Source of the DNA: a virus
DNA: 64,000 bases
Reading direction: 5' to 3' (one strand)
Virus record (IMG/VR): IMGVR_UViG_3300020172_006270
Location: 1 to 64,000 of that record
Both the position numbers and the translations under genes were made by a program. Of the stretch, positions 20,064 through 47,298 are shown one piece after another; positions within the stretch are counted from its first letter, which is position 1; each line of letters opens with the position of its first letter. The notes beneath the pieces were generated by a model, which searched no databases, was not told the DNA's origin, and was given only the letters and a program-made list of their open reading frames with translations.

Positions 20064-21350
20064 ATGAAAATAATTGTAATCGGAGCAGGATTCTCCGGCC
20101 TTGCTTGTGCATACGAGCTAATGACCGCTGGTCATACCGTTCAAGTTCTGGAAGCTCGCAACCGAGTTGGTGGCCGAGTATACAGCAAAGACGATTTCAT
20201 CTCTGGCATGAACGTCGAATTCGGTGGAGAGCTTATCGGCTCGAACCATTATTCCTTAATCGGCTACGCTCTTGAGTTTGGCCTCGAATTCTTGGAAGCC
20301 GAAGATAATGATGCTGAAACACCGATCATACTGAAGCAACAAAAGCTGTCGCAGGTAGAGTACGGAAATATCAAAACAGAAATATCCAAAATGCAAAATG
20401 CGTTGTCGGAAATGGCTGTTGATATTGATGCTAACCAACCTTGGTTGTCTCCACGAGCCGAATATCTGGATCAGATTTCGATGCGAGAATGGATTTACAC
20501 TCAAGATGCTTCGGCAATATCCAAATATCTTTTCGATATTCAGGTATCGAGTGACAATGGCGTAACCTCTGATAAGCAAAGTCTTTTGGGCAACTTAGTT
20601 TTAATTCGAGGCGGTGGCCTCGATAAATTCTGGAGTGATACCGAAAGCTACCGCACCAAGGGCGGCAACCAACAATTCGCTTTGAAGTTTGCTCAAAAAT
20701 TAGGCACTCGATTAACTTTGAATTGCCCGGTAACTCATATCATCACCGAGCCAAATGTTGTTGTTGTAGATGCTCATGGCGTAAATCACGAGGCCGATAT
20801 TGTCGTATTGGCAATTCCACCTTCACTGTGGTCTACCATTTATTTCACGCCGGAATTACCTGAAGATTTCATTCCTCAAATGGGAATGAATATCAAGCAT
20901 CTCTCGGCAGTTGAAAGCAAATATTGGATCAACAAAAACGTGTCGCAAAATGCCAAAGGCGACAGAAAGATTAACGAAACATGGAACGGCACAGAGGGCC
21001 AAGTCCAGGTTGATTATTCTGCCATCGTGATATTCAGTGGTGGCGAATCTGCAAAATCAGTAAATGCTGAGAAGGAATTGCTTGATGAGTTGGAGGAGTT
21101 TTATCCAAATATCAACCAGTCTATTGTTCGCAGTGAACTGGTTAATTGGATAACTGATCGCTGGACAAAGTGCGGATATTCTTTCCCGGCACCTGGAGAG
21201 ATCACAAAGCTCGGCCCAATTTTGAGACAGGGCATTGGGAACCTGCATTTTGCAGGTGAACATACATGCTATAAGTTCATTGGATACATGGAAGGCGCAG
21301 TCACATCTGGTTCGGACTTGGCTGCAAGAATCATCAAAGAATTAAAATAA
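20064..21350 (+). CDS. FAD-dependent amine oxidase
   Basis: This 428-residue protein is a flavin monoamine-oxidase family member: dinucleotide-binding VIGAGFSGLACAYEL at the N-terminus, EARNRVGGRV after the second strand (the motif that follows the FAD ribose contact), GGNQQFALKFAQKLG in the middle and LHFAGEHTCYKFIGYMEGA at the C-terminus, where the flavin sits. Members oxidise amines, polyamines or amino acids with release of hydrogen peroxide. Length is normal and nothing appears lost. ATG follows GGAAGGATTCC. It is unusual for a phage, and its ends touch the leftward gene at 21342 by nine bases. Confidence 0.9.
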   Translation: MKIIVIGAGFSGLACAYELMTAGHTVQVLEARNRVGGRVYSKDDFISGMNVEFGGELIGSNHYSLIGYALEFGLEFLEAEDNDAETPIILKQQKLSQVEYGNIKTEISKMQNALSEMAVDIDANQPWLSPRAEYLDQISMREWIYTQDASAISKYLFDIQVSSDNGVTSDKQSLLGNLVLIRGGGLDKFWSDTESYRTKGGNQQFALKFAQKLGTRLTLNCPVTHIITEPNVVVVDAHGVNHEADIVVLAIPPSLWSTIYFTPELPEDFIPQMGMNIKHLSAVESKYWINKNVSQNAKGDRKINETWNGTEGQVQVDYSAIVIFSGGESAKSVNAEKELLDELEEFYPNINQSIVRSELVNWITDRWTKCGYSFPAPGEITKLGPILRQGIGNLHFAGEHTCYKFIGYMEGAVTSGSDLAARIIKELK

Positions 21351-21623
21351 CGTGCCTTGAATTGGCGGTTTATCTTGAGGTAATTTTTCTTGAGGCGGTG
21401 GCTCTATTTGGGTCGCCGCCTTATTTTTTACCATTTCCTTAATCTTGTTCAAGGCAGTCCAAGGCTTAAAACGTGCCAATTTTTGAAGTTGACGATGGTA
21501 AAGAGCATCGGTCACGAAAACGTACCGGGTGCTGTCAATGTAGACGATTATTGTCCCATCTTTCCACCAACTGCCGAATCTAATGTTTTGCCCTTCGTTC
21601 AAGAGCCATTCTCTGAAGTTCAT
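21342..21623 (-). CDS. Small protein with head-targeting-like leader (FREWL)
   Basis: The ATG at 21623 gives MNFREWLLNEG at the N-terminus, a motif shared with several other genes here; a GTG at 21647 would add eight residues and hide it. The body of this 93-residue protein has two beta strands (GTIIVYIDSTRYVFVTD) and a basic helix, and ends with a Pro/Gln-rich tail (PPPQEKLPQDKPPIQ). TATAAATC lies right before the ATG on this strand. Function unknown. Confidence 0.7.
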   Translation of the reverse strand: MNFREWLLNEGQNIRFGSWWKDGTIIVYIDSTRYVFVTDALYHRQLQKLARFKPWTALNKIKEMVKNKAATQIEPPPQEKLPQDKPPIQGTLF

Positions 21624-21667
21624 GGATTTATATATTGGGCTTGGCACCTATTCAGATACGAGGTAAA

Positions 21668-22435
21668 ATGGCTGAAAACAAAAAAGAACACTTATTCTCG
21701 GAGAGTGATGTGCGACTCGAAGCAATTATCGACTACGAAATGGATGAACTTGAAGGCAAAGCGTATAAATTGTGCTTGCTCTGGCTCGATAGAAGTCGTA
21801 AAGTATTCCCTGAATATCAGCACACGACAATGAAGAAGGGCGACCCTCGAAAGTCGCTGATATTCAAAGTGTGCTACAAGCTGGCTCGTGAGACACAGGG
21901 CGTACTCGAAGAAAAAGACTACCCTTTGTATATCCGGGCGCAGCTTGATGTTCTCCGACACATCAATACCGGCAAGGGCCATCCTCTCATCGACGCAAAT
22001 TGTTTGGTGGGAGATAAAGCCTGGAAGCGGTGGAAATTATGGAAAAGAAAATATGATTCCATCTCTGCGAAGCCGTCCGAAGTATCCCAGCCTGTTGGTC
22101 CCGGCGTTATCAAAGCTCTCGAAGGACTTGAGCGAACCAAAGAGTTCTTCGCCAAAACCTTTGGAGCAAGTCCAAGTCTTGAAAAGTACCGGGAGTCCTA
22201 CATCAACAACAACCTCTTTCGCTGGGTTAATTTCGGCAAAATCAGCCCGTACTATATTGCAATGTCGCCGCACATTGCGGCAGTTATGAAGCCGGAAGAT
22301 TATAAGAGAATGAACTTCGATCCCGATCTGTACAAGCCCTGCATTACAGATGATGTAATTCGTAAGTTCAGGGAAATGTTTCCGCACGAGTTCGATAATT
22401 TTATTTCTGATTTCTCCACTGAGACAATAGGATAA
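21668..22435 (+). CDS. Hypothetical protein, 255 aa
   Basis: ATG at 21668 follows GAGGTAAA, a strong ribosome site; the longer frame from 21635 is unnecessary. The protein is helical and charged throughout, with aromatic-rich segments (KAWKRWKLWKRKYD; NNLFRWVNFGKISPYYIAM). It ends five bases before the next gene. I do not recognise the family; the basic aromatic helices would suit nucleic-acid binding but that is a guess. Confidence 0.75.
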   Translation: MAENKKEHLFSESDVRLEAIIDYEMDELEGKAYKLCLLWLDRSRKVFPEYQHTTMKKGDPRKSLIFKVCYKLARETQGVLEEKDYPLYIRAQLDVLRHINTGKGHPLIDANCLVGDKAWKRWKLWKRKYDSISAKPSEVSQPVGPGVIKALEGLERTKEFFAKTFGASPSLEKYRESYINNNLFRWVNFGKISPYYIAMSPHIAAVMKPEDYKRMNFDPDLYKPCITDDVIRKFREMFPHEFDNFISDFSTETIG

Positions 22436-22439
22436 GCAG

Positions 22440-22712
22440 ATGCTTTCTCCAAAAGAGTTTAGAACACTCATGGCAGAACAGGGACGTGAATACACTGTCG
22501 ATCAAGCGTCTAAAATACTACGCAATTTAATTTCGTTGAATAAAAAACTCAAGAAACAACCTGATTTGAGTTTGATGAGCCAACAAGAAAAGCAAAGATC
22601 GAGAATGGAAGCCGCAGAGCATGGCATGGAGATTTCTCCCGACGAATTTAATCAACTGCATGATCTAATGGTTGATATTCAACAATCAGATTTTGAGGAT
22701 TACAATTCATGA
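22440..22712 (+). CDS. Hypothetical small protein, 90 aa
   Basis: A helical, charged protein opening MLSPKEFRTLMAEQG, with a Lys-rich middle and an acidic end. No family recognised. It sits between the 255-residue unknown and a glycosyltransferase-like gene, and overlaps the latter through ATGA, so the three are probably one transcript. Confidence 0.7.
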   Translation: MLSPKEFRTLMAEQGREYTVDQASKILRNLISLNKKLKKQPDLSLMSQQEKQRSRMEAAEHGMEISPDEFNQLHDLMVDIQQSDFEDYNS

Positions 22713-23425
22713 ACTTAGTCTATCTTCCCCTTAGTAGAACAAACTGTGATTATGCTGATTTATGGTTTGGCAATAGTAAAAACTACGACATACTTGTGAA
22801 CAATTGGGGCGACCCTGGCTTTTTTCGGGATCGAAACCCTGAGTTATACTTTGAAATCAAAGAACATAAATTTCGCACATTGTTGAGTCTCTATGGACGT
22901 AATTTCAAGACGTTAAGCAAATACGACTATGTGATGTGTCCCGATCCTGATCTGAAAATTAAAGTTCAGGACATCAACAAATTGTTTGACATGGCAAAGC
23001 AATATGACTTAGATTTATGTCAACCATCTATCACGGGACACCTTAATCATCCGTGTTTAGCTCCAGTAGATAACAAAAACATTCTCATTAGGCATCTGAA
23101 CTTGATCGAGCCTATGTGTCCAATATTTTCTCGCAAAGCTATGCTCTCTTGCTTGTGGACGTTTTCTTTGTCATACTCTGCATGGGGCCTTGATTTTGTT
23201 TGGCCAGTTATTGTCAGTAATGAAAAGAGGTCTAATGTTGGCGTCATCAATGGTATAAGCATAGAGCATACACGACCATGTGTTTCAAAGGATATTGTGT
23301 TCCCAAATGGCAAAAAGGCATGGGATGAACACCAAGAGACACTTACTGCGTTTGGGCTTACAAACGCCGTTAAAATTTACCACACAACTTCTATGTTTTC
23401 TTCAAAATCAAATTTTATGTTGTGA
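22709..23425 (+). CDS. DUF707-like putative glycosyltransferase
   Basis: The 238-residue protein matches the DUF707 pattern by eye: YDYVMCPDPDLKI (an acidic D-x-D-x-D strand end), LFDMAKQYDLDLCQPSI, the RHLNLIEPMCPIFSRKAM core and SAWGLDFVWP followed by a late VNGISIEHTRP. DUF707 proteins are predicted GT-A fold transferases, common in surface-glycan loci. No signal or membrane segment. Overlaps genes on both sides by four bases or fewer. Confidence 0.72.
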   Translation: MNLVYLPLSRTNCDYADLWFGNSKNYDILVNNWGDPGFFRDRNPELYFEIKEHKFRTLLSLYGRNFKTLSKYDYVMCPDPDLKIKVQDINKLFDMAKQYDLDLCQPSITGHLNHPCLAPVDNKNILIRHLNLIEPMCPIFSRKAMLSCLWTFSLSYSAWGLDFVWPVIVSNEKRSNVGVINGISIEHTRPCVSKDIVFPNGKKAWDEHQETLTAFGLTNAVKIYHTTSMFSSKSNFML

Positions 23426-23427
23426 CC

Positions 23428-24102
23428 ATGAACCAATACAAACAATACCTCGATCAATGTAAGCTCGACGACAAATATCCATTTGAGTTTTTTGGCTCTA
23501 AACCATTTGATTCAATAGATGTTGGTCAAGAATACACATTGAATGAACGGGAAATTAAAGCTACGGAAATCTTAGGACCGAAAAGAACTCAAGCTGCACG
23601 AGCCAGTGGCAAAGTGAATATGATTCAGGCTGCGTCTGGTGGCTCTGATAAAGAGAAGTTCATGGAAATCAATGGACTTCAAGGCGAATTACTTTATGCC
23701 AAGATGTTCGACCTTTATCCAGGTGAGCAATTGGAGATTCGTCCAAGAGATGCCAAAGACGATTTCGGAGATATAGTGCATGATGGCCTCAAGATTGACA
23801 TCAAGGCCACTGAGTACCACACAGGAAGGCTCACGCTTTCTCATTGGAAACAAGCGGAACACATTGATGCACTGTGTCTATTTACTGGAAAGAATGGCAG
23901 GTTTACGTTCCGTGGCTTCTATTGGGCAAAGGAATTAGCCAAAGAAGAAAACTTCCGTTGTTTGCCAGGACGAGATAAGCCACAATACATCATGGAACAA
24001 AGAAACTTGTTGTCGTTCGACGCCCTGAAAAATAGAACACCACAACAGCCCAACATAATTCAGTCGGCGACATCAATTACTGATTTTGACTATCTCCAAT
24101 AA
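23428..24102 (+). CDS. PD-(D/E)XK-like nuclease candidate with leader-type N-terminus
   Basis: I start at the ATG at 23428 (MNQYKQYLDQC), two codons after an in-frame GTG, because the resulting N-terminus resembles the leader motif of other genes here. In the body, NGLQGELLYAKMF supplies a helix glutamate, then DDFGDIVHDGLKIDIKAT fits the D...(D/E)xK active site, with IDIK as the core. That arrangement is typical of PD-(D/E)XK endonucleases, but it also occurs in non-nuclease relatives. Substrate unknown. Confidence 0.55.
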   Translation: MNQYKQYLDQCKLDDKYPFEFFGSKPFDSIDVGQEYTLNEREIKATEILGPKRTQAARASGKVNMIQAASGGSDKEKFMEINGLQGELLYAKMFDLYPGEQLEIRPRDAKDDFGDIVHDGLKIDIKATEYHTGRLTLSHWKQAEHIDALCLFTGKNGRFTFRGFYWAKELAKEENFRCLPGRDKPQYIMEQRNLLSFDALKNRTPQQPNIIQSATSITDFDYLQ

Positions 24103-24111
24103 GGAAAAAGC

Positions 24112-24456
24112 ATGTGGTGTGTAGAAGACGAACGCAAGACTGGCCTCAAGAACGGCCTGCGACAATTAAGTGTAGAAGAGTTGCTGAAAGTGTTCTTGCA
24201 TCCTGAGCCAATGGTTCTGGACACATACAACTACGAAGATGGCAAGTTCTGCCCGTTGGCGGTAGCGTTGGGCCTGACCGATATGGCTGACCCTTCACAT
24301 GAGAAGGTGTATCAAGAATTGACCAGACTAGGCTATAAGGTCAACAACACTCGTGGGATCAAAGGTGACTTCTATACAATGAACCGCCTCGATGATCTGC
24401 TAGAGGCCACCGAGGAGGTTCTGTATGAGAAACTTCAAGACAAGAAAGCCGCTTAG
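24112..24456 (+). CDS. Hypothetical protein, 114 aa
   Basis: Starts MWCVEDERKTGLKNGLRQL after AAGGAA. Mixed alpha/beta with a FCPLAVALGL segment in the middle and a charged C-terminal helix. I know no family for it. It meets the leftward thioredoxin gene with a four-base overlap of stop codons. Confidence 0.75.
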   Translation: MWCVEDERKTGLKNGLRQLSVEELLKVFLHPEPMVLDTYNYEDGKFCPLAVALGLTDMADPSHEKVYQELTRLGYKVNNTRGIKGDFYTMNRLDDLLEATEEVLYEKLQDKKAA

Positions 24457-24998
24457 TATTTATCGTCAAGCAACGATACGTTCTTTGGTCGCAACCAAGT
24501 TAGCATATCATCCTTGCTCTTGAATCCAGAGTCACGGACAATAACAGTCTCAGATGTATCAATGACCATATAGGCAGGGATACCTGAGACTTTGTATTTT
24601 CTGGCCGTCGCACGATCTTTGTCGGTGTCGATGAGGCAAGTGACATATTCCTTGCCCAGCTTGTCCTTCACAGCCGCATCAGAAAGCGTTTCTGATTTCA
24701 TCTTCTTGCACCAACCGCACCACTCCGCACCGAAATACAAAAAGATTGGTCGATTGTGTTTCTTAGCGGCAGCTAACGCTTCTTGGTAGTTGCTGAAATT
24801 AGCCAGCACTTCTGGTGGTGCTACAGGTGGAGGAACCACAGGAGGCGTGACTGGCGGCGTCACAGGTGGAGCGACAGGATCAGTCATCTCAATAGGTGGT
24901 TTTACTGGCACAACATTATGTTTGCCGTATTTAACATACAAGGCACCGGCTCCAACTAAGAGCAGCGCAGCAATCAAGATTTTCTTTGAGTCCATCAT
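24453..24998 (-). CDS. Membrane-anchored thioredoxin-like protein
   Basis: The 181-residue protein has an N-terminal membrane segment (about residues 6-22), a Pro-rich spacer built of TPPV/PPPVAPP units (about 40-63) and a thioredoxin domain with active site CGWC (94-97) in the context EWCGWCKKM, as in DsbD-gamma and single-domain periplasmic thioredoxins. The cis-proline segment GIPAYMVID is present. The anchor should place the domain outside the cytoplasm, with the proline spacer crossing the cell wall or periplasm. Possible roles are disulphide handling for virion or lysis proteins. Confidence 0.88.
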   Translation of the reverse strand: MMDSKKILIAALLLVGAGALYVKYGKHNVVPVKPPIEMTDPVAPPVTPPVTPPVVPPPVAPPEVLANFSNYQEALAAAKKHNRPIFLYFGAEWCGWCKKMKSETLSDAAVKDKLGKEYVTCLIDTDKDRATARKYKVSGIPAYMVIDTSETVIVRDSGFKSKDDMLTWLRPKNVSLLDDKY

Positions 24999-25009
24999 TG
25001 TCCTCTGTT

Positions 25010-25828
25010 TTAATACTGTAAGAAGGTCTGAACTATACTGTCGATGATATTTTCGTGTTTCTGTTGAGGCGAATAATATTCATTGAACTCAGCAGGCTGA
25101 ACTTCCCACGAGTGTTGTCCAGTTGAAGAGTCAATATCGTAACCGAGACATCGGATCAATCCACGCTTTGGCTCCCAAACCATGTCGATGTTGAATTGTT
25201 CCGCACGACCTCCACCACTTCCGGCTTTTTGCCGATTTACTCCCTGTCCACGGAATTCAAATACGAGCTTGTAGTAATTTTCATTTTGCTGTCGCATCCC
25301 AATGGGGAACATGCAATATGACGGATGTTGACGTTTGGTTGCGGCCCATAGTTTCCACGACAACCGCTCTAATTCATCATACTCTTTGGCAGGCCCCGGA
25401 ACCATCTCATTGGAAACTTCCGTAAGCGTATCGTATACGTCGTGAGCAATGGCTGTTTCTTTATTTTCGGCTGCGTTATCGCCAAGTGGTATTACCTTGG
25501 TGCATATCCAAGTAGCCTCGCCGCATAGGTCTTTTGTCATTCTACGGACAACGACACGCATTGATCCTAGCGGCGTCACGCCCACCTGGATTGCCCCAGG
25601 ACCGACTCCCCATTCTACCACATCGTTCCATCGTTGAAGAGGACGATTAGGGCCAAGAGCCGGGAAACTCGCTAGTTCTGTGATGATTTTGCTGCCGTCT
25701 ACCGCTTTGAATAGAGTGTCCCCATCCATTGCCTCAATGCCGCCTTTCGGCTTGCCTCGTTGGTCATTGTCAAAGCCGAAATCGGCCATTTCGGATAACA
25801 TCCATTGCTTGAAAAGTAAACGGTTCAT
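25010..25828 (-). CDS. Unknown protein, 272 aa, with leader-type N-terminus
   Basis: Begins MNRLLFKQWMLSEMADFG, matching the shared leader pattern. The rest is a globular, beta-rich protein with clear strands (GAIQVGVTPLGSMRVVVRRM) and a Gly-rich turn (AGSGGG) near residue 200. No family recognised. TATAAAGT lies directly before the ATG. It is divergent from 25877 across a 48-base gap. Confidence 0.72.
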   Translation of the reverse strand: MNRLLFKQWMLSEMADFGFDNDQRGKPKGGIEAMDGDTLFKAVDGSKIITELASFPALGPNRPLQRWNDVVEWGVGPGAIQVGVTPLGSMRVVVRRMTKDLCGEATWICTKVIPLGDNAAENKETAIAHDVYDTLTEVSNEMVPGPAKEYDELERLSWKLWAATKRQHPSYCMFPIGMRQQNENYYKLVFEFRGQGVNRQKAGSGGGRAEQFNIDMVWEPKRGLIRCLGYDIDSSTGQHSWEVQPAEFNEYYSPQQKHENIIDSIVQTFLQY

Positions 25829-25876
25829 GACTTTATATATAGGAACAGACTCAATTACTGCAAGGGAAGAAATGGT

Positions 25877-26893
25877 ATGGGAGCATTTAGAAGTTGGCTC
25901 AATATGAATGAAATGGCCGTCAAAACGACGAGCAGATTCGGAAAACCGATTCCGAATCTGGATAGTCGTGACGATGCTGGCCTAAAACATATGTCCCGTC
26001 CAGGTTTCCGTGATGTGGATCGAAACCTAATTCATCGGGATTCTCCTGAAGTTGAACGCAAGTTAACCCAGGCCACTGAAAAATACGGTATCCATTGGGT
26101 GATTGGATATTTGGAGCCAAAAGAAGACGCTGAAGAGAATAACCCAGCCCATTGGGATCAATATGCAGCCCAGGCAAAGCAAGACGGCCAGCAAATGCTC
26201 CAGCAGTTCAGTCAGGAATACAATCCGTCACAGTCGGTAGTTCCCATTGAGCCGCCCAACCCAGAAAATACGATTGTCTATATCAAGCCGACATCTCGTG
26301 TTCACAGCTTGACCCCACATGAACAAGTCCATAATATCGGCCACGCCTTGTGGCTGAGGAACCCTGCGCAGATGGCTCGTGCCAAACAAGAGCTTATGCA
26401 GGCGGTTCATGTATTGCAACAGTCGGCACATGAAGCTGACCCGCAGTCGCCGCCACCAACTGAAGCTGAAGTCACCATCATCTTGGCTCGATTGATTGAC
26501 TTGCTCTCCTACCAAAGAACTCTTACCCTAAACCCTGGTGATTTAGGCAGTTCTGTTAAGACCGCATTGACGGCATTCAATTCATTTGACGAAGTTATTT
26601 TCGATTTGATTCCAGCATTCGTAAATGCAGGTGGTCAGATTAACCTCTATCCAAGAGGCCCTGGAAAGATCGCTAAATTCGACCGCACGGGAGCAATCCC
26701 GCCAAATCAGGAGGTCATCCAGCAAAAGGGTGTGCGTCCGTGGGTGTGGGAAAAGATGGCGGCTGACCGAAACGCTTGGGCAGAGGTTTCTAAGATCATC
26801 ACTGGCATCGTAATTGAATGTTTGCAAGCCTCGACTTGGGCCAAGAAAGGCGGTCCCATTTACCCTTACCAAAAGTTGACTACCAAGCCATGA
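25877..26893 (+). CDS. Unknown protein, 338 aa, with leader-type N-terminus and HEQVH motif
   Basis: Starts MGAFRSWLNMNEMAV, the leader pattern, with AAGGGAAG eight bases before. Near residue 155 it has SLTPHEQVHNIGHALW, which fits the zinc-protease HExxH core followed by a glycine and another His, although a third ligand is not certain. The sequence between is Pro/Gln-rich (QSPPPTEAE) and helical. If it is a head-packaged protease this would be notable; a chance HExxH is equally possible. ATGA overlap with the next gene. Confidence 0.6.
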   Translation: MGAFRSWLNMNEMAVKTTSRFGKPIPNLDSRDDAGLKHMSRPGFRDVDRNLIHRDSPEVERKLTQATEKYGIHWVIGYLEPKEDAEENNPAHWDQYAAQAKQDGQQMLQQFSQEYNPSQSVVPIEPPNPENTIVYIKPTSRVHSLTPHEQVHNIGHALWLRNPAQMARAKQELMQAVHVLQQSAHEADPQSPPPTEAEVTIILARLIDLLSYQRTLTLNPGDLGSSVKTALTAFNSFDEVIFDLIPAFVNAGGQINLYPRGPGKIAKFDRTGAIPPNQEVIQQKGVRPWVWEKMAADRNAWAEVSKIITGIVIECLQASTWAKKGGPIYPYQKLTTKP

Positions 26894-27027
26894 AAAACGA
26901 TAACACAGCATCATTACTTATCGGTTTGATCTTAGGGATCATTATCGGCTCTTTTCTCGGATATAAATATTCAGAACAACAACATGAACGTGACAATTCG
27001 TTTAAGATAAAAATAGGTGGTAATTGA
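26890..27027 (+). CDS. Small membrane protein, 45 aa
   Basis: ATG at 26890 overlaps the previous stop (ATGA). The protein is one hydrophobic segment with small-residue spacing (LLIGLILGIIIGSFLG, a glycine zipper) between a polar start MKNDNTA and a charged tail (YSEQQHERDNSFKIKIGG). Single-pass membrane topology is likely. Too short to assign a role. Confidence 0.6.
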   Translation: MKNDNTASLLIGLILGIIIGSFLGYKYSEQQHERDNSFKIKIGGN

Positions 27028-27311
27028 TGTTTAAGGTTTGGCTTACCGAAATGGAAAACAAAGGTTATGACTTCTACAAGAATATCCTTCTTGGTAAACT
27101 GAACCTTGACCGCACCCACGGCTTATCCCAAGGACTTGATGCTTGGGAACCAGAGCAGTTAATCAATGTTCTCAATGGACTTGGCGAGTTCAAAGAGTTG
27201 CGACAAGAAGTTCAAGATCAAGTCGTCGGGCAGATCAGAAGTCGGATGGGAACTCTTGGTGATCTCATCCGTATTATGTCTTCAACACCAACTTTAGGCA
27301 GCAATGGATGA
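27027..27311 (+). CDS. Small protein with leader-type N-terminus, 94 aa
   Basis: Starts at ATG 27027 (MFKVWLTEMENKG) after AGGTGG; an in-frame TTG one codon earlier is not needed. The leader pattern F-x-x-W-L-x-E is clear. The rest is helical with a Glu/Gln-rich middle (FKELRQEVQDQVVGQIRS). Ends in ATGA overlap with the DDAH-like gene. Function unknown. Confidence 0.7.
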   Translation: MFKVWLTEMENKGYDFYKNILLGKLNLDRTHGLSQGLDAWEPEQLINVLNGLGEFKELRQEVQDQVVGQIRSRMGTLGDLIRIMSSTPTLGSNG

Positions 27312-34542: not shown

Positions 34543-34544
34543 CC

Positions 34545-34829: not shown

Positions 34830-34832
34830 CAT

Positions 34833-34861: not shown

Positions 34862-34869
34862 CCGTCACT

Positions 34870-35571: not shown

Positions 35572-35573
35572 AC

Positions 35574-36383: not shown

Positions 36384-36391
36384 GGGCAATA

Positions 36392-37218: not shown

Positions 37219-37429
37219 AATCAAAACCACCAATGTTGATTTGAACAGCTTGGAGCCAACATATTTCAAGCTGGTGTTGACCACTTCGTTCTCGCCTGAA
37301 GAAATTCAGAAGTTGAATGAATTGGGCGGTGAACTCAAATACGATGGTGGATTGACCGCTCTCATTTTGATTCCACCCTTCAGAATTGAAGAATTCGCTC
37401 AGATCGAATCCATTCTTGAAGTTCGATAA
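37211..37429 (+). CDS. Hypothetical small protein, 72 aa
   Basis: ATG at 37211 overlaps the previous stop region (ATGAGTAA). Two beta strands around YFKLVLTTSF and LTALILIPPF flank a helix (SPEEIQKLNELGG). Last gene before the terminator hairpin at 37434. No family recognised. Confidence 0.7.
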   Translation: MSKIKTTNVDLNSLEPTYFKLVLTTSFSPEEIQKLNELGGELKYDGGLTALILIPPFRIEEFAQIESILEVR

Positions 37430-37433
37430 AACT

Positions 37434-37471
37434 AATCCCATGCGGGCTAAATACTCGCATGGGATTATCTT
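37434..37471 (+). terminator. Intrinsic terminator overlapping the next gene's start
   Basis: AATCCCATGCG (37434-37444) pairs exactly with CGCATGGGATT (37456-37466), an 11-bp stem with an 11-base loop, followed by ATCTTTTTCT. It should end the operon from 34870. The start codon at 37459 lies in the 3' arm and the U-run is codons 4-6 of that gene. The loop contains CTAAATA. Confidence 0.82.
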
Positions 37472-38232
37472 TTTCTAAGTGGTTGGTCGTCAGCGAGGTC
37501 TTTAGACTCGATCTAGGCCACGTTTTAACGCTCGCAGAAGCCCTGGAACTCTCTCCAGAGGCCCAGGCACGCATTGATAAGACCAAATCAGGCTATCAGC
37601 CAGGACCGCACTCCAGCGATCACCTTGTCGCTGCAATCCTTGGCTACAAGCCTGCCGCCATCGTTCTCTATGCTCATCATCCCGAAAGCCCCGCTGCGGC
37701 TATCGTCACGGATGCACTCAAAAAGGGCGATTCAGGCCGCATTCAGGCCGAGCTTCTTGCTCATGGAATTAAGGTTAGACCTGATTTTCACATTATCCAT
37801 ATGAATCTTCCTGGATATTCAACTGCAAATATCATGGTGGGCGGCAAAGCAGCAGTTGAAGAGTTATGGAAAGTCTACCAATGTCAGTTTTATTTGGATC
37901 AAATAAGTTCTGACGACCATTCTGCTGTTACTCCTGAAATGATGGCCAAAGTAAACAATGTTATGCGTGGCAGATGCGAAGTTCTCTGCAAGAGGGGTTA
38001 TGGCGGCATGAATTGCCAACCAATTCATAAAAGAATTGGGGAATTACTCGGATACACAGACCAGCAAGTTGATGACTTCCTAAAATCAATGGGAGGGTTT
38101 AAGCACATGCCGGATGTAGAATACCCGTTTGAATTACCACCAGCTTTGGCTGCTGCACCAAAGAAAAAAGGCTTTGAACCTCATGAGTCAAGAAACCACT
38201 TTATTCGATCTAAAGCCCCCTCGTTTATTTGA
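37459..38232 (+). CDS. Unknown protein, 257 aa, with leader-type N-terminus
   Basis: Starts MGLSFSKWLVVSEVFRL, matching the shared leader. Sequence then turns to a helical LTLAEALELSPEAQARID and a domain with SDHLVAAILGYKPAAIVLYAH. A cysteine-containing stretch (GRCEVLCKRGYGGMNC) near 175-190 might be structural. ATG overlaps the 37434 hairpin and has no usual ribosome site; the late-like CTAAATA is just upstream. It overlaps the GT4 gene by 50 bases. Confidence 0.7.
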   Translation: MGLSFSKWLVVSEVFRLDLGHVLTLAEALELSPEAQARIDKTKSGYQPGPHSSDHLVAAILGYKPAAIVLYAHHPESPAAAIVTDALKKGDSGRIQAELLAHGIKVRPDFHIIHMNLPGYSTANIMVGGKAAVEELWKVYQCQFYLDQISSDDHSAVTPEMMAKVNNVMRGRCEVLCKRGYGGMNCQPIHKRIGELLGYTDQQVDDFLKSMGGFKHMPDVEYPFELPPALAAAPKKKGFEPHESRNHFIRSKAPSFI

Positions 38233-40777: not shown

Positions 40778-40790
40778 TTTTTCCGAACTC

Positions 40791-40799
40791 CACTATATA
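40791..40799 (+). promoter_or_regulatory. TATA-rich late-promoter-like element before the fibre genes
   Basis: The TATATAAAA run at about 40791-40799 sits some 45 bases before the ATG at 40845, with GGAG close to the start codon. It resembles the T4 late box. It is placed where a virion operon promoter would be expected. Confidence 0.35.
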
Positions 40800-40844
40800 A
40801 AACGACTGCTTGACGCTGCTTTAAGAGAGTGGAGAAACAAAAGA

Positions 40845-42323
40845 ATGCCAATAGTAATAACGAAACCAGTGCTTACAGCAACCTATTTAGTGGTTGATGA
40901 GAATGGCACTGTTATTTCGTCTCACCCTCAAAATATCGAGATCGAGTCAGTAGACGCCGATAGTTTTTTGCAAGCTCTAAGTGATTTGATGCTGGCAAAA
41001 GACGGCCTTGAACTCACCGCTAGTGAAGTTCATATGTTGATACGCACTGGCAATATGATTTCTCTCGGTAACGTCCAAGCTGCCACTCTCGGCGTTCAGA
41101 GCCAATATCAATTCCCCACAGCGGTTGGATCGACCGGGCAGGTTATTGGGTATCAAGGCACGAGCCAGTTGGCATGGGTTAACTCAGGTAGTGGCGCTCA
41201 AGGCTTTCAAGGAAACCAAGGCGCACAGGGCAATCAAGGCGCACAAGGAAATCAAGGCAATCAAGGAAACCAGGGGTTTGCAGGCTCGGTTGGTTCACAA
41301 GGTTTTCAGGGCAATCAAGGCAATCAGGGAAATCAAGGCACACAAGGCAACCAAGGGAACCAGGGATTCCAAGGTTCTGCCGGTACTGTCGGAAATCAAG
41401 GATTTCAAGGTAATCAAGGTAATCAGGGAAACCAAGGAACACTAGGAAACCAAGGCAACCAGGGATTACAAGGTTCTGCTGGTACGGTTGGTTCACAAGG
41501 ATTCCAGGGAAACCAAGGCAATCAGGGTAATCAAGGCACTCAAGGCAACCAAGGAAACCAAGGCAACCAAGGAAACCAAGGAACCGCTGGATCACAGGGT
41601 TTTCAAGGCAACCAAGGCGCACAAGGTAATCAGGGAAATCAGGGCAACCAAGGCACACAAGGTTTCCAAGGCAATCAGGGTAATCAAGGAACTGCTGGCG
41701 CACAAGGATTCCAGGGCAACCAAGGCAATCAGGGAAATCAGGGCAACCAAGGCACGCAAGGTTTCCAAGGCAATCAGGGCAACCAAGGAACTGCTGGCGC
41801 ACAAGGATTCCAGGGAGTTCAAGGCGCACAAGGAAATCAAGGATCACAAGGAAACCAGGGCATTTCTGGCTTAGGGTTTAGTGTTCCTTATACATTCAAC
41901 ACAAGCACAGTGATGTCGGCGGCTTCTGGAGAAGTTCGATTCAATAATGCTACGATTGCATCTATTACCAATATCGACATCTCAAGAACAGATCGCAATG
42001 GTGCTGGTCAGCAAGCTGTGTTGGATCGCATGTCATCTGGCACATTGTTTAGATTCTCTGCCGAAGCTAGTGCTACACAATACAACTTCTTCCAAGCCAA
42101 TAGCGTAACGAAGAATGCTCAAGATTATAACTTTGCTGTTGCATACTTGTCGAACAATGGATCGTTGTTCTCTAACTCAGCAAATATTGGTTTGGGAATT
42201 GCCATGATCGGCTACCAGGGCAATCAGGGCGCTCAAGGCTTCCAGGGCTACCAAGGCTTCCAGGGCGCTCAAGGCGCACAAGGACACCAGGGCAACCAAG
42301 GTAATCAAGGAGGAGGCATATAA
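40845..42323 (+). CDS. Collagen-like Gly-X-Gln fibre protein, copy 1
   Basis: 492 residues: an N-terminal domain (1-116, ending GQVIGYQGTSQLAW, a pattern of phage tail-fibre joints), a Gly-X-Gln stalk of about 230 residues with GNQ, GAQ, GTQ and GFQ triplets, a globular beta domain (about 348-455, starting PYTFNTSTVMSAA) and a second short Gly-X-Gln stalk to the end. The stalk has no proline; Gln holds the Y position in nearly every triplet, interrupted by GFAGSV and GSAGTV. Triple-helix stability would have to come from side-chain bonds. Probably a virion fibre or whisker. SD GGAG at usual distance. Confidence 0.9.
   Translation: MPIVITKPVLTATYLVVDENGTVISSHPQNIEIESVDADSFLQALSDLMLAKDGLELTASEVHMLIRTGNMISLGNVQAATLGVQSQYQFPTAVGSTGQVIGYQGTSQLAWVNSGSGAQGFQGNQGAQGNQGAQGNQGNQGNQGFAGSVGSQGFQGNQGNQGNQGTQGNQGNQGFQGSAGTVGNQGFQGNQGNQGNQGTLGNQGNQGLQGSAGTVGSQGFQGNQGNQGNQGTQGNQGNQGNQGNQGTAGSQGFQGNQGAQGNQGNQGNQGTQGFQGNQGNQGTAGAQGFQGNQGNQGNQGNQGTQGFQGNQGNQGTAGAQGFQGVQGAQGNQGSQGNQGISGLGFSVPYTFNTSTVMSAASGEVRFNNATIASITNIDISRTDRNGAGQQAVLDRMSSGTLFRFSAEASATQYNFFQANSVTKNAQDYNFAVAYLSNNGSLFSNSANIGLGIAMIGYQGNQGAQGFQGYQGFQGAQGAQGHQGNQGNQGGGI
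41190..41867 (+). repeat. 9-base-phased Gly-X-Gln repeat, gene 1
   Basis: DNA of low complexity made of ggc/gga/ggt-aac/aat-caa/cag codons for Gly-Asn-Gln and variants. Near-identical runs of 30-60 bases recur, so recombination could change stalk length in steps of three residues. It also creates false long open frames in the other readings. Confidence 0.9.
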
Positions 42324-42324
42324 A

Positions 42325-43929
42325 TTGATAATCACGATTAAACCACAAATATCGGTTAGACTTCTTAAAGCAGATGGTGATACCATCCTGTCTGCTCATG
42401 ATAAATCTATCGACGTTGATTTGGTTGCCGATGATTTCATCTCTGCATTCAATACTTTGTTTGCCGACAAAGACGATTATCAACTTGTTGAAAGACCTAT
42501 TGTTTCGACCAATTTCTTATTGGTAAACAATAATGATGTTGTTGTGGCAACTCATCCACAAAGAATTGAACTTGGATTGAACATCGAGAGCTTTTTGGAT
42601 GGCATGAATAAGCTGATCGAAATTCGAGATGGCTTAGGCGGCGTGAATGCGTTGCTCACAATGGGCAATATCATTTCACTCGGCAATGTGCAGGCTGTAT
42701 CTCTTGGCATTCAAAGCCAGTATACGTTTCCAACGACAGCCGGAGTGACTGGACAAGTCATTGGCTATCAAGGCACATCTCAATTGGAATGGATCAGTGG
42801 TGCTACTGGTTTGCAAGGCCCTCTTGGTCTTCAGGGTCGGCAAGGAAATCAGGGGAATCAAGGCAACCAAGGCACGCAGGGCTTCCAGGGCGTTGGATCG
42901 CAAGGCTCGCAAGGCTTTCAAGGCAACCAAGGTCGTCAAGGAAACCAGGGCAACCAAGGCAATCAAGGCAACCAAGGATTTCAAGGTGTTGGATCGCAAG
43001 GCTCTCAAGGCGCACAGGGAAACCAAGGTCGTCAAGGAAACCAGGGGAATCAAGGCAACCAAGGTACACAAGGTTTTCAAGGGTCTGGCTCGCAAGGTCT
43101 GCAAGGCGCTCAGGGAAACCAAGGCAACCAAGGTGTACAAGGCAACCAAGGAACGCAAGGCAACCAAGGCCGACAAGGAAATCAGGGAGCCGGTCTGCAA
43201 GGCGCACAGGGAAACCAAGGTCGTCAAGGCAACCAAGGAAATCAAGGCAATAGAGGCTTACAGGGTCCGCAGGGCCGACAAGGAAATCAGGGAGCCGGTC
43301 TGCAAGGTCGGCAAGGCAACCAAGGAACACAAGGAAGACAAGGCAACCAAGGCAATCAAGGCTTTCAAGGTCGCCAAGGCAACCAAGGTTTAGGACTTCA
43401 GGGGCGACAAGGCTTTCAAGGCAACCAGGGGAATCAAGGCTTTCAAGGCAATCAGGGAGTTATCGCTCCTGGGTTTGTGTTGCCGCTCGCATTCAACACA
43501 AGCACCGTAATGTCGGCGGCATCTGGAGAGTTGAGATTCAACAACGCTACTGTTGCATCTGTGACCAATATTGACGTGTCGAGAACCGATAGAAATGGTT
43601 CTGGTCAACAGGGCGTGCTTGATAAATTTGGTAATGGCACTTTGTTTTTCTTTACGTCTGAAGCGGTAGCTTCTCAGTATAGTTTTTTCACTACTACTGG
43701 CGTGACGAAGAATGCAAGTGACTATAACTTCAGCGTTAGCTATATTTCTAATGCTGGTACTTTGTTTGCTAACTCACAAAATGTGAGTATGGGTGTTGCT
43801 CTGCTTGGATTCCAAGGAATCAGCTTGCAGGGCGCTCAAGGCTTCCAAGGACGCCAAGGCTCTCAAGGCTTCCAAGGACACCAAGGCAACCAAGGCGATC
43901 CTGGTGGTCCGGTTATTGAAGACCCTTAA
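42325..43929 (+). CDS. Collagen-like Gly-X-Gln fibre protein, copy 2
   Basis: Tandem paralogue of 40845 with 534 residues. The N-terminal region is longer (about 160 residues, again with GNIISLGNVQAVSLGIQSQY and GQVIGYQGTSQLEW), the stalk has many GRQ triplets besides GNQ, and the same C-terminal beta domain and short tail follow. The start is TTG at 42325, 12-15 bases after AAGGAGGAGG. GRQ makes this stalk basic, so the two products could pair with each other in a mixed fibre. Confidence 0.88.
   Translation: MIITIKPQISVRLLKADGDTILSAHDKSIDVDLVADDFISAFNTLFADKDDYQLVERPIVSTNFLLVNNNDVVVATHPQRIELGLNIESFLDGMNKLIEIRDGLGGVNALLTMGNIISLGNVQAVSLGIQSQYTFPTTAGVTGQVIGYQGTSQLEWISGATGLQGPLGLQGRQGNQGNQGNQGTQGFQGVGSQGSQGFQGNQGRQGNQGNQGNQGNQGFQGVGSQGSQGAQGNQGRQGNQGNQGNQGTQGFQGSGSQGLQGAQGNQGNQGVQGNQGTQGNQGRQGNQGAGLQGAQGNQGRQGNQGNQGNRGLQGPQGRQGNQGAGLQGRQGNQGTQGRQGNQGNQGFQGRQGNQGLGLQGRQGFQGNQGNQGFQGNQGVIAPGFVLPLAFNTSTVMSAASGELRFNNATVASVTNIDVSRTDRNGSGQQGVLDKFGNGTLFFFTSEAVASQYSFFTTTGVTKNASDYNFSVSYISNAGTLFANSQNVSMGVALLGFQGISLQGAQGFQGRQGSQGFQGHQGNQGDPGGPVIEDP
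42810..43464 (+). repeat. Gly-X-Gln repeat, gene 2
   Basis: Same type of codon-level repeat as at 41190 with interspersed cga/cgt-caa (Arg-Gln) codons. Homologous tracts could drive unequal recombination between the two fibre genes. Confidence 0.88.
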
Positions 43930-43930
43930 A

Positions 43931-44143
43931 TCATGGGCTTTTGGTATTAGTTGCATCAACTGGCGTGTCATCGGCCTTGCCGACATCGGCATTTTCCAAT
44001 ACTTTGTTGATGTAGATGATGTAGTCTTCTTGCCCTGCTTTATATCCTTGGTGATAACCAACGACATAGCCGCAAGTGATGTACACGAGTGCCAACAGCA
44101 TAAACAATAATACTGATGGTATTTTCTTAATGAATCTCATCAT
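43931..44143 (-). CDS. Single-pass membrane protein, 70 aa
   Basis: Starts MMRFIKKIPS, then one hydrophobic segment (VLLFMLLALVYITCGYVVG) and a polar tail of 40 residues. Basic start and acidic end suggest the N-terminus inside. ATG overlaps the stop of the upstream gene. It could be a small holin- or spanin-type protein, but no evidence beyond topology. Confidence 0.65.
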   Translation of the reverse strand: MMRFIKKIPSVLLFMLLALVYITCGYVVGYHQGYKAGQEDYIIYINKVLENADVGKADDTPVDATNTKSP

Positions 44144-44445
44144 AGTGATTTCACATAATCTTGGATTTTGAAGTAATCGCCGACGATACGTCTAATGCGT
44201 TCGTCGGCATCTTTGTAAAGGCGATTACGGCGACCCCGTTCTTCATCGCCTTGTTCTTGCACGAACTTCTCGAAGCCGCACAAATAGCACCACACCCAAT
44301 ATCGTTTGTTTCTCAGTTTTTCAATGACATAGCTGTGGTATGCGTCCCAACTGAGATTCCATTTCTTGAATAATTTGGAGTAGCGTTCCTCCATCATCTT
44401 GATTTGGTTCTCGTAAAACTCTGGCTCGTAATCAGGAGTATCCAT
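44140..44445 (-). CDS. Hypothetical protein, 101 aa
   Basis: Charged, aromatic-rich and helical (ERYSKLFKKWNLSWDAYHSY, KRYWVWCYLCGFEKF). Starts in TAATG overlap with the UvsW gene. A CYLC pair could bind metal but there is no second pair. Unknown. Confidence 0.7.
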   Translation of the reverse strand: MDTPDYEPEFYENQIKMMEERYSKLFKKWNLSWDAYHSYVIEKLRNKRYWVWCYLCGFEKFVQEQGDEERGRRNRLYKDADERIRRIVGDYFKIQDYVKSL

Positions 44446-45893
44446 TAGAAATCAATTTCCTTAATTTTGACTTCGTGACCTTCCTCAGTCAGAATTTTAA
44501 TTCTTTTCTTTGAGTGATCCTGGAGATAATCGTTGATTTCAAACAGGAAGTCATAATAGTTCAAATCTTCTTTGTCATCAGCGGTACGAAGACCTCGACC
44601 CATTCTTTGAATAATCAAGTGGTCGGCCTGACCGCCAGCAGCGTTAATCAAATTATGAACAAATACGTTGATGCCGGTATTGAAAATTTGTTGCGTAGCA
44701 ATCGCTATACATTCTTTATCCTTTTGAAGTTGCTTCACAACACTCTTTCGGGTTGCCTGAGTATCTTTTCCCTGAACCCAGATACTTCCCGGCAGCAGGT
44801 TATGTAGGGCATCTCCGTGAGCAATTCGATCCACCAAGATCAAAGTTCTGCCAGTCTGCTTCTTGGCCAATCTAGTTACAATTTTATGGAAGTGATAGCT
44901 TTCAGCAATACCTCTGGTTACGGCATCAATATAGATGTCGTGAGGAATCATTGGTTCTCTGATCGGATAAAACGTACAATTCGAGTTAGAAAGAATGCCT
45001 CTGCCTTGAAGCTCGGCAGTGGTCAATACGCCTGTCGCCGCACTCTTTACCTTGAGGATAGGGCCAAAGAATCCTCGAACGTGGAACTTCTGCACGTTGT
45101 CTTTGCCGCCGAATTTGAATGGTGTGGCACTAACGGCGACTCGCACATCGCAGGCTTTTAGACGACGATATACAGCTTTTGGCAAAGCACTCATCATATC
45201 GTGAATTTCGTCTACGATAAGCACTTTGATCTTAGGCAAAAGTTTTTCAATTTTGGCAACACTTTGAACGCTGGCAACCGTGATAATATTTGGATTGGCC
45301 GCACCGCCCCAAAGAGTGCCTACATTATTGAATCCCCAATTTTTGATTTCATCGTAGTTTTGTTGAGCCAACGTAACCCGGTTTTGCAAAACAAGAGTAG
45401 GTGTCCCAGGCGGGATAGATTTTAGAATGCCCAACATGATGAATGTTTTACCAGCACTCGTCGGAGCATAAATGACTCCACGACGATGCTTGAGGACTTG
45501 ATTGACCAATTCGACTTGGTAATCATGTAATATAACTGGCTTCATTGGGTCGCCGCCCAATGTTGTAGCTGGTAGCCATTGATTCAAAAAGTTTTGGTCG
45601 ATTGAATCAAAAAGGAAAGGAGTCTTTTTTCGGTTATCTTCTACAGTGAAGTCAACTTTGAAATGTCTGAGAACAGCGGTGACTTCAGGAAGTAAACCTG
45701 TGAGAAACTTACCTGTTTCGAGAGCGAAGAATTGGATATAACCGTCCCACTTCCGCATTTTGTATGCACGGTTATGGAAGTAGTTCCGGTCCCTGAATCT
45801 CAGACGATCCCAAATCTCGTGCTTCGTCTGTAGGTCTTCCGACAGGAAATACGAGTAATCGTTCTCTATTCTCAATATGTTCGTGTTGCTCAT
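44445..45893 (-). CDS. uvsW: UvsW-like SF2 DNA helicase
   Basis: 482 residues with an N-terminal ~115-residue module as in T4 UvsW (RNYFHNRAYKMRKWDGYI), then SF2 motifs: LHDYQVE (Q-type), Walker A APTSAGKT (143-150), DEIH (228-231), SATP (255-258) and C-terminal QRMGRGLR. UvsW unwinds recombination and R-loop structures and helps switch replication from origins to recombination. Length fits T4 UvsW (about 500). The start at 45893 has no strong ribosome site. Confidence 0.92.
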   Translation of the reverse strand: MSNTNILRIENDYSYFLSEDLQTKHEIWDRLRFRDRNYFHNRAYKMRKWDGYIQFFALETGKFLTGLLPEVTAVLRHFKVDFTVEDNRKKTPFLFDSIDQNFLNQWLPATTLGGDPMKPVILHDYQVELVNQVLKHRRGVIYAPTSAGKTFIMLGILKSIPPGTPTLVLQNRVTLAQQNYDEIKNWGFNNVGTLWGGAANPNIITVASVQSVAKIEKLLPKIKVLIVDEIHDMMSALPKAVYRRLKACDVRVAVSATPFKFGGKDNVQKFHVRGFFGPILKVKSAATGVLTTAELQGRGILSNSNCTFYPIREPMIPHDIYIDAVTRGIAESYHFHKIVTRLAKKQTGRTLILVDRIAHGDALHNLLPGSIWVQGKDTQATRKSVVKQLQKDKECIAIATQQIFNTGINVFVHNLINAAGGQADHLIIQRMGRGLRTADDKEDLNYYDFLFEINDYLQDHSKKRIKILTEEGHEVKIKEIDF

Positions 45894-46018
45894 TTTTTGT
45901 GTCTATCGCCTGAGTTTGTATCGTCTTCCTGGCACGGGTTATTCTACCAGATTTACTGCCTCTTGTACCACTCCGTTTTGACCCACAACACATGGCATTT
46001 CCTCACTTAAAATAACTT

Positions 46019-46330
46019 ATGTCAAGTATATATGCCCCTGAAATCGTGTTGAACATACAATCACATCAAATTGTTCCACAGCAGCGTAAGCTAAAAGCTG
46101 TATGGTCAGTAGAGGCAGCACAAGATTTACAGTCTTGGAATACACCAGAACAAGAATTGGCTGATTTGATGGCGCAAGAAATTGCGAACGAGATCGACAA
46201 GGAAATCCTTGAAGACCTCGCTCGCAATGCACGGGAAGCCGCTGAAGAGGAATTACGGTTTAAGAACCGGAAAAAGAAAATCCTGCCAAGGTCTATCAAT
46301 GACGATTGGCAGGTTTCAAGGTTTGATTAA
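46019..46330 (+). CDS. Small protein with gp23-type capsid motif
   Basis: 103 residues. Positions about 8-71 match a conserved stretch of T4-type major capsid proteins: PEIVLNIQSHQI, RKLKAVWSVEAAQDLQSW, EQELADLMAQEIANEID and KEILEDL (usual form RKLKAxWTxExAQDL... EIxxEIDREI). A full gp23 has about 500 residues, so this is either a stand-alone fragment of the capsid protein or a new small protein that borrows its helix to join the capsid. The C-terminal ~30 residues are basic. The stop overlaps the next gene by four bases. Confidence 0.7.
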   Translation: MSSIYAPEIVLNIQSHQIVPQQRKLKAVWSVEAAQDLQSWNTPEQELADLMAQEIANEIDKEILEDLARNAREAAEEELRFKNRKKKILPRSINDDWQVSRFD

Positions 46331-46929
46331 GCTGGCAATAGTTTGTGTCGCACGAGTTTGACGACCATCAGGGCGTCCTCAAGTGCAGTATGGGCCACTT
46401 CTCCGGCCATTCCTGCTCGTTCCAGACACGTTGCCGAGTCTGGCAGAGTCTTATCCCCAGGCTGGTAATACAAGATCGCTGGGTCAATAACACGATGCAG
46501 GATCGTAATGTCGCCCCAATGCTTCTTGAGCTTCTTGTTCAAGAATGGCAGATCGAACATGGCGGCATTCTTCCCAGCCACAGTAATCTTGACTCGACCA
46601 CTCTTAGGGTCTTCAGGAACGCCGTTTTGAGTCAAGAAATTCTTGAATGCGAATGGCAAGTCAAGAATGTGCATAAATCGGTCGCCGAATTCGTTCTCTT
46701 CAATACGCTTCTTTTGGGCGTCGGCGATTTTCTTGAATATTTGAGGGTGCATACCCAGGGCATATGGCTCGCCAGTATATGTTGGCTGGGTGAAATGGGT
46801 CTGAAACTTAGGGAGCTTTTCAAGTGGCTGTGGATTAGACAGATCGTCAATCACGGCTGCAAACTGGACAATATCGCAGGTTTTTGGATTGAGTCCCGTG
46901 GTTTCAATGTCAATTGAGCAGTAAAGCAT
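46327..46929 (-). CDS. DEDDh 3'-5' exonuclease (DnaQ-like)
   Basis: The 200-residue protein has SIDIETTGLNP (Asp-x-Glu, residues 6-8), AGKNAAMFDLPFL with the second Asp and HTALEDA with the catalytic His and final Asp, so all four acidic residues and the His of the DEDDh type are present. It could proofread for the PolA gene at 17958, whose own exonuclease is missing, or act in repair or RNA trimming. Confidence 0.9.
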   Translation of the reverse strand: MLYCSIDIETTGLNPKTCDIVQFAAVIDDLSNPQPLEKLPKFQTHFTQPTYTGEPYALGMHPQIFKKIADAQKKRIEENEFGDRFMHILDLPFAFKNFLTQNGVPEDPKSGRVKITVAGKNAAMFDLPFLNKKLKKHWGDITILHRVIDPAILYYQPGDKTLPDSATCLERAGMAGEVAHTALEDALMVVKLVRHKLLPA

Positions 46930-47028
46930 AGTTTATTCCTTGGTTTTGAATGGCTGGCAAAATATCAGAATAGCAGGATCATTTGTTTCGAGCCAGAGAT
47001 ATTTGTAGTTTGCAACCTAAATAAAGGC

Positions 47029-47298
47029 ATGAAAACCTTTACCCAATATCTCCGTGACACCAATAGACTCGATGAGGGTCTAATGGATTTCTTCCGTGGC
47101 AAGAAGCACGTTGAGCCGACACCACCAGCCGATGACCCTGTATCCAAATGGAAGGCCATGCGCCAAAAGTCCACTCTGGGACAGTTTGATAAAACCGGCC
47201 CAGATCAGGACGCTCCAGCAGACGACGGCGAAGCAGATGTTATGGCAGCAATGAGCCGCAAACCAATGCGTTCTCGTAAAATGTCAAACAAGCGTTAA
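47029..47298 (+). CDS. Small protein with T4-CTS-like leader, 89 aa
   Basis: MKTFTQYLRDTNRLDEGLM closely resembles the T4 internal-protein capsid-targeting sequence (MKTYxEFIAE-type). The rest is acidic/Pro-rich (PTPPADDPVS, DQDAPADDGEADV) ending in a basic tail (KPMRSRKMSNKR). Charge and disorder would suit a protein packed with DNA. CTAAATA lies five bases before the ATG. This is the best match of the group to the T4 leader. Confidence 0.7.
   Translation: MKTFTQYLRDTNRLDEGLMDFFRGKKHVEPTPPADDPVSKWKAMRQKSTLGQFDKTGPDQDAPADDGEADVMAAMSRKPMRSRKMSNKR

What the first reader, a model, noticed from the sequence alone, without database searches (positions are those of the whole stretch)
21342..47298. 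A shared N-terminal leader on at least seven unrelated proteins resembles the T4 capsid-targeting sequence
Proteins starting at 21623(-) MNFREWLLNE, 25828(-) LLFKQWMLSEM, 25877(+) MGAFRSWLNMNE, 27027(+) MFKVWLTEMEN, 37459(+) LSFSKWLVVSE, 47029(+) MKTFTQYLRD and 23428(+) MNQYKQYLDQC share aromatic-x-x-W/Y-L/M followed by an acidic residue within the first ~15 residues; the bodies are unrelated. T4 internal proteins carry such a leader, cut off by the prohead protease. If true, it marks a set of head-packaged, possibly injected proteins, including a nuclease-like protein and one with HEQVH.
Basis: partly seen in the sequence, partly recalled or inferred. Interest (0 to 1): 0.85.

Follow-up and report, generated by a model that had tools for sequence, protein, structure and literature searches.

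The report
Head-packaging leader on many phage proteins
A huge T4-related phage puts the same short N-terminal tag, which in T4 loads proteins into the phage head and is then cut off, onto dozens of otherwise unrelated proteins including several enzymes, suggesting it carries a large set of ready-made proteins to inject into its host.

Summary
Five of the seven (21623-, 25828-, 25877+, 37459+, 47029+) are well supported; 27027+ is probable; 23428+ is not supported. The window lies in a 223 kb record of a T4-related phage with gp21 (prohead protease), gp23 and a gp55-like late sigma factor; its best gp23 relative is a 595 kb uncultured phage. In five genomes of this clade the leader reads M-(K/L)-(T/S)-F-(K/R)-(E/Q)-(W/F)-L-x-x-x-E, matching the T4 IPIII capsid-targeting sequence at the residues that matter for targeting and cutting. 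Independently of the peptide, a T4-type late-promoter core (TAWATA) lies 3-9 nt before the ATG: 37-59% of such ATGs carry the leader, against about 2% of others. Orthologs keep the putative cut-site Glu. The leader sits on complete domains: Acb1-like 2H phosphoesterase, NADAR, C39 peptidase, NUDIX, HAD, UvrD helicase, PD-(D/E)XK-like nuclease. Most likely these are head-packaged, gp21-trimmed, injected proteins, a large expansion of the T-even internal-protein principle. Packaging, cutting and injection are inferred; no virion data exist here.

The parts
21342..21623 (-). Leader-bearing gene, 93 aa; leader MNFREWLLNE| = 21623..21594. Ortholog in G001 carries MPLQSFTTWLTE|NQKQRIQF
21629..21636 (-). 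Late-promoter-like core (TATATA within AATATATAAATCC), a few nt before the ATG
25010..25828 (-). Leader-bearing gene, 272 aa; leader MNRLLFKQWMLSE| = 25828..25790; orthologs with leader in LR756511, G002, G003
25834..25841 (.). TATATATA palindrome, late-promoter-like; serves 25828(-) directly and probably 25877(+)
25877..26893 (+). Leader-bearing gene, 338 aa, HEQVH motif; leader MGAFRSWLNMNE| = 25877-25912. Two close strains have about 1 kb deleted, keeping promoter and leader but losing the body
27027..27311 (+). Probable leader-bearing gene, 94 aa; MFKVWLTE| = 27027-27050; no canonical element upstream
37459..38232 (+). Leader-bearing gene, 257 aa; leader MGLSFSKWLVVSE| = 37459-37497; leader residues conserved in L392 and L390
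37448..37453 (+). Late-promoter core TAAATA, 5 nt before ATG 37459
37422..37478 (+). Inverted repeat (23-nt arms, 83%) with the late promoter in the loop and the start codon in the 3' arm; would bury the ATG in read-through mRNA
47029..47298 (+). Leader-bearing gene, 89 aa; MKTFTQYLRDTNRLDE| = 47029-47076, closest to the T4 leader in wording
47018..47023 (+). Late-promoter core TAAATA, 5 nt before ATG 47029
23428..24102 (+).

Best explanation
The shared N-terminus is a T4-type capsid-targeting sequence. Late in infection a gp55-directed late promoter that ends 4-5 nt before the ATG makes (nearly) leaderless mRNA for each cargo gene. The leader, probably a short amphipathic helix with two aromatics three apart, binds the prohead core, so the cargo is built into the prohead. 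gp21 then cuts after the Glu of a hydrophobic-x-E site, freeing the mature protein in the head, and it is ejected with the DNA into the next host. In this clade the tag has been put on dozens of unrelated bodies, many of them enzymes, some plausibly counter-defence. Shown here: the shared leader, its conservation at peptide level, the promoter coupling, and the presence of gp21, gp23 and a gp55-like sigma factor. Inferred: packaging, cutting, injection, leaderless mRNA and the effector role.
For: Strict motif in 18 of 268 genes vs 3.0 in shuffles. In ATG frames with TAWATA 3-9 nt upstream the leader occurs in 13/22, 37/82, 13/27, 8/21 and 19/51 (five genomes), against about 2% elsewhere; other aromatic spacings and permuted hexamers not overlapping the promoter are not comparably enriched. 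Exact promoter+leader pattern 37 hits, scrambled promoter 2, reversed 0. 119 leaders give the consensus MKTFKEWLxxxE; hydrophobic-x-E in the 9 residues from the second aromatic in 87/119, against 7-18 in later windows. Synonymous codons vary freely, so the peptide is what is conserved. gp21 present; gp23 putative cut site conserved; gp55-like sigma in all five genomes. Orthologs keep leader and Glu while the W-to-E distance varies: WLVLQE|SNLQDLY, WMHLDE|SSLNDLY, WLNE|SSLNDLY. Complete domains begin just after the leader: NADAR 19-164 of 165, C39 from 23, NUDIX from 14. AF2 model of the nuclease: leader helix 3-15, low-confidence linker to 67, folded body. T4 Ip1-3 share only such a leader and are injected anti-restriction proteins (PMC12373910).
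Against: No virion proteomics. Some leaders lack a clear Glu (genome 150748, several in LR756511), so a few may be packaged but not cut, or be chance matches. About half of relaxed matches are background. Not every leader gene has the abutting promoter, and not every such promoter gene has a leader. The five genomes are related, so counts are not fully independent. The leader helix has low confidence in the AF2 model.
Confidence: 0.85

Rival explanations
1. The common start is selected for translation of leaderless late mRNA: the first codons, not the peptide, matter, and the proteins stay in the cell.
For: Strong coupling to a late promoter 4-5 nt before the ATG.
Against: All synonymous codons are used at F, L, E, K and R. 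The Acb1-like orthologs keep FKQFLVNE although no promoter abuts them. T4 IP genes carry the same peptide behind ordinary Shine-Dalgarno leaders. The cut-site Glu has no role in such a model.
Confidence: 0.05
2. The leader is a targeting tag for another assembly (tail, baseplate, membrane or phage nucleus), or a protein-interaction tag without cutting.
For: Aromatic amphipathic helices are common docking signals, and some leaders lack a clear cut site.
Against: Position-by-position match with T4 IPIII, including the Glu, and the presence of gp21 and a gp23 with hydrophobic-N-E.
Confidence: 0.08
3. Descent or chance: the leaders are remnants of a few duplicated genes, or aromatic-rich N-termini by chance.
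For: The relaxed pattern has a 2% background, and some families are orthologs across genomes.
Against: 18 vs 3.0 in shuffles, promoter association p<1e-18 in each of two genomes, and unrelated domains behind the same leader.
Confidence: 0.02

Closest known systems
T4 internal proteins IPI, IPII, IPIII with their capsid-targeting sequence, processed by gp21
   Same: Leader MKTYQEFIAE / MKTFKEF matches the clade consensus MKTFKEWLxxxE; unrelated bodies behind one leader; gp21 and gp23 present; late promoter
   Different: T4 encodes three Ips and related phages at least 10 in all (PMC12373910). Here about 26 candidates in 223 kb and at least 40 in 595 kb, many of them enzymes; W often replaces F at position 7; distance to the Glu is variable; late promoter abuts the ATG, while T4 ip genes have SD leaders
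T4 Alt (ADP-ribosyltransferase)
   Same: A head-packaged, injected enzyme of a T4-type phage
   Different: The Alt N-terminus (MELITELFDEDTT) does not show this leader
phiKZ / SPN3US ejection proteins and their prohead protease
   Same: Large phage, many ejected head proteins with propeptides cut after Glu (PMC9026906)
   Different: Different phage lineage; this clade has T4-type gp21 and gp23 and a short common leader
P1 DarB N-terminal packaging signal
   Same: N-terminal signal sends an antirestriction protein, and a reporter fused to it, into the head (PMC9024508)
   Different: No shared consensus among P1 Dar proteins was found there; a different signal
T4 gene e / soc hairpins
   Same: Late promoter inside a hairpin that hides the start in read-through mRNA (PMC3014915); seen here at 37459 and two other leader genes
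   Different: T4 examples are not leader-tagged cargo genes

Membership tests
T4-type capsid-targeting sequence (CTS) proteins | Two aromatics three apart near the N-terminus (T4 Y4, F7) | tested here: met
   spacing 3 only
T4-type capsid-targeting sequence (CTS) proteins | Hydrophobic-x-Glu processing site right after (T4 I8, E10) | tested here: met
   87 of 119 leaders; Glu kept in orthologs with varying spacing; a minority lack it
T4-type capsid-targeting sequence (CTS) proteins | Cognate gp21-type prohead protease and cleavable gp23 in the same phage | tested here: met
   Presence only: Peptidase_S77 E=4.8e-27; gp23 with conserved putative cut site. Cutting itself not tested
T4-type capsid-targeting sequence (CTS) proteins | Unrelated bodies behind a common leader | tested here: met
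T4-type capsid-targeting sequence (CTS) proteins | Late expression | tested here: inconclusive
   Late-promoter core at 3-9 nt and a gp55-like sigma; no transcript data
T4-type capsid-targeting sequence (CTS) proteins | Present in the head, trimmed, ejected | not testable with these tools
   Needs virion proteomics or fusions
Orthologs of T4 IPI/II/III themselves | Sequence similarity of the mature body | tested here: inconclusive
   IPIII search found nothing in G000 (no positive control)
Acb1 anti-CBASS family (cargo at genome 209286) | 2H phosphoesterase domain over Pfam cut-off | tested here: met
   Acb1 34.9 bits (cut-off 27), 2_5_RNA_ligase2 38.8 bits (cut-off 27); activity untested

The most novel reading that the evidence does not exclude
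Huge T4-type phages carry an arsenal of tens of different pre-made proteins in the head, with enzymes such as an Acb1-like cyclic-nucleotide hydrolase, NADAR, NUDIX, a cysteine protease, a UvrD helicase and a nuclease. They recruit new cargo by portable cassettes of an abutting late promoter plus leader that give leaderless late mRNAs, some kept silent in read-through transcripts by a hairpin.
Probability: 0.6. Interest if true: 0.82.

Novelty: new variant of a known kind. Interest (0 to 1): 0.74.

Why it matters
The leader gives a sequence test for which phage proteins are packaged and injected, a set normally known only from virion proteomics of cultured phages. It assigns a role (delivered at entry) to many nameless genes of uncultured huge phages, and predicts that counter-defence enzymes such as an Acb1-like protein act before any phage gene is expressed. 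It could also supply new tags for protein delivery by phages.

Tried and rejected
A single-sequence search with T4 gp55 found nothing; the profile did. AF2 of 25877 alone failed (pLDDT 35), so HEQVH remains an unassigned zincin-like motif. Foldseek of the 178031 model gave only weak matches, best 2ost E=3.5e-3, though nearly all the top ones are PD-(D/E)XK nucleases and Holliday-junction resolvases. The idea that L380 shows the leader on another body was rejected: it is a deletion allele. 23428 was rejected as a leader protein.
Full report
What the window is. The window is the first 64 kb of a 223,268-base virus record. The record encodes T4-type gp21 (Peptidase_S77, E=4.8e-27, 187847-188263 minus), gp23 (E=2.3e-88) and a gp55-like late sigma factor (phrog_234, E=1.5e-9). 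The nearest gp23 among phage records is that of LR756511.1, a 595,163-base uncultured phage (79.8% identity; next best 43%). Many IMG/VR contigs, up to 533 kb, carry gp23 at 83-99% identity. The record is therefore probably a fragment of a huge phage.

Checking the observation. With the T4-style cut site (hydrophobic-x-E) added, 18 of 268 genes match, against 3.0 in shuffles (maximum 9 in 500) and 5 of 1076 internal Met codons. The gene set comes from a simple caller of my own, which missed some short genes such as 21623.

An independent mark. Looking at DNA upstream, leader genes share TAAATA or TATATA, usually 4-5 nt before the ATG. This is the core of the T4 late promoter, TATAAATA at -13 to -6 (PMC1524935). 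A 5-nt spacer would put +1 on the A of the ATG, so the mRNA would be leaderless; this is inference. In five genomes (G000; LR756511; parts of G001, G002 and G003), ATG frames with TAWATA at 3-9 nt carry F-x-x-[FWY] in 59, 45, 48, 37 (G002) and 38% (G003), against 1.7-2.7% of other ATG frames. Aromatic spacings of 1, 2, 4 and 5 are not enriched, apart from a modest rise for spacing 4 in LR756511 that partly reflects FxxWF-type leaders. Permuted hexamers that do not overlap the promoter are not enriched either. The exact joint pattern gave 37 hits in 14 records, against 2 for a scrambled promoter and 0 reversed. A looser joint pattern stands out in the clade genomes (10, 33, 9, 10 and 8 hits with few control hits). 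In T4, Syn33, LR756508, a Microcystis phage, XacN1 and a Flavobacterium phage it is near the control, although XacN1 has one convincing case (ATG AAG ACT TCA TTC CGC CAA TTC behind TAAATA).

The leader. 119 leader proteins with the promoter, deduplicated by N-terminus, give M-(K/L/N)-(T/S/N/D)-F-(K/R)-(E/Q)-(W/F)-(L/V)-(E)-x-x-E. A hydrophobic-x-E site lies in the nine residues from the second aromatic in 87 of 119, and in 18, 15, 10, 10 and 7 in the next windows. These are the positions known from T4 IPIII: residues 4 and 7 for targeting, 8 and 10 for processing (PMC9026906). T4 IPII and IPIII read MKTYQEFIAE|A and IPI MKTFKEF. gp23 of the clade has ENQRL[MVIF]NE just before its conserved core, the counterpart of T4's cut site, and leaders often use N-E as well (WLLNE, FLLNE, YINE, WLSLNE). 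The codons vary freely. Some of the 119 are orthologs across genomes, so counts are not independent events.

Orthologs. 171523 reads WLVLQE|SNLQDLY in the own genome, WMHLDE|SSLNDLY in G001 and WLNE|SSLNDLY in LR756511; a G002 protein has the leader on an extra N-terminal part in front of the same body. 25828 reads WMLSE|MADFGFD and WFNE|YADFGLD. 95741 reads FLLNE|SQAYLGQ, FLLLE|QRAYLGQ and FLITE|QKEYLAD. So the Glu is kept while the distance changes. The nuclease 178031 has a G001 relative that lacks this leader and linker, as expected of an added tag.

Cargo. Over or near Pfam cut-offs: Acb1-like 2H phosphoesterase (209286); GNAT, weak (184429); NADAR, Peptidase_C39 and HAD_SAK in LR756511; NUDIX, NIF/HAD phosphatase and ParB_N; Radical SAM, UvrD helicase and DUF3293. 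HExxH-like motifs stand in 25877 (HEQVH) and 136292 (HEAEH). The 178031 model folds with a leader helix (low confidence), a low-confidence linker and a body nearest to PD-(D/E)XK nucleases, weakly. Several of these would fit counter-defence at entry; T4 Ip1-3 inhibit GmrSD enzymes (PMC12373910; also PMC9391042). For most cargo the role is open.

Regulation. At 37459, at 136292 and in G002 (243754) the late promoter lies in the loop of a 12-17 bp hairpin whose 3' arm holds the ATG; shuffles give none. T4 genes e and soc use such structures to keep read-through mRNA silent (PMC3014915). Divergent leader genes 25828 and 25877 share TATATATA. Two close strains lost the body of 25877 but kept promoter and leader, which fits dispensable cargo.

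Verdict. The best reading is a T4-type capsid-targeting leader, greatly expanded. It works like the T-even system and meets the defining features that sequence can settle; late expression is only indicated, and packaging, cutting and ejection are not tested. New here are the scale, the enzyme cargo and the abutting late promoter. In the papers I could search I found no report of this for huge phages, but subscription literature is not covered.

Noticed in passing
window 46019-46330 (+) and L005:5667-5978 (-): Two short ORFs are fragments of gp23 (middle part and C-terminal part) and both end in the same tail SI[NT]D[DP]W[EQ]VS[RQ]FD; a third ORF (genome 179885 minus) begins MTRKITDPWEVSKDS. 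Function unknown.
   Followed up: partly
window 37422-37478: Inverted repeat enclosing the late promoter of 37459; the same layout at genome 136292 (-) and G002 243754 (-). In L390 the palindrome is perfect and the ATG is out of frame with the leader, possibly a mutation or an assembly effect.
   Followed up: partly
L380, L381 around 1501: Strain variants with about 1 kb deleted inside the gene matching window 25877, leaving a 39-aa ORF with the leader.
   Followed up: yes
LR756511 269324(-)/269344(+) and 473532(-)/473554(+): Divergent pairs of leader genes sharing one short TATATA palindrome as a probable bidirectional late promoter.
   Followed up: no
Syn33 (GU071108) 146376 (+), 99408 (+); T4 19130 (-), gene 61.1: CTS-like starts in cultured phages: MKKFSAFLTEAEKS on a cytidyltransferase, MKSYNEFISESVNIS, and T4 61.1 MKTFKEFIKEDM.
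   Followed up: no
window 40845-43929: Two tandem genes with long collagen-like QGNQGNQG repeats and similar ends, probably fibres.
   Followed up: no
window 1-64000: Many glycosyltransferase-like and radical-SAM-like genes (by eye) around the leader genes, suggesting surface-sugar synthesis.
   Followed up: no
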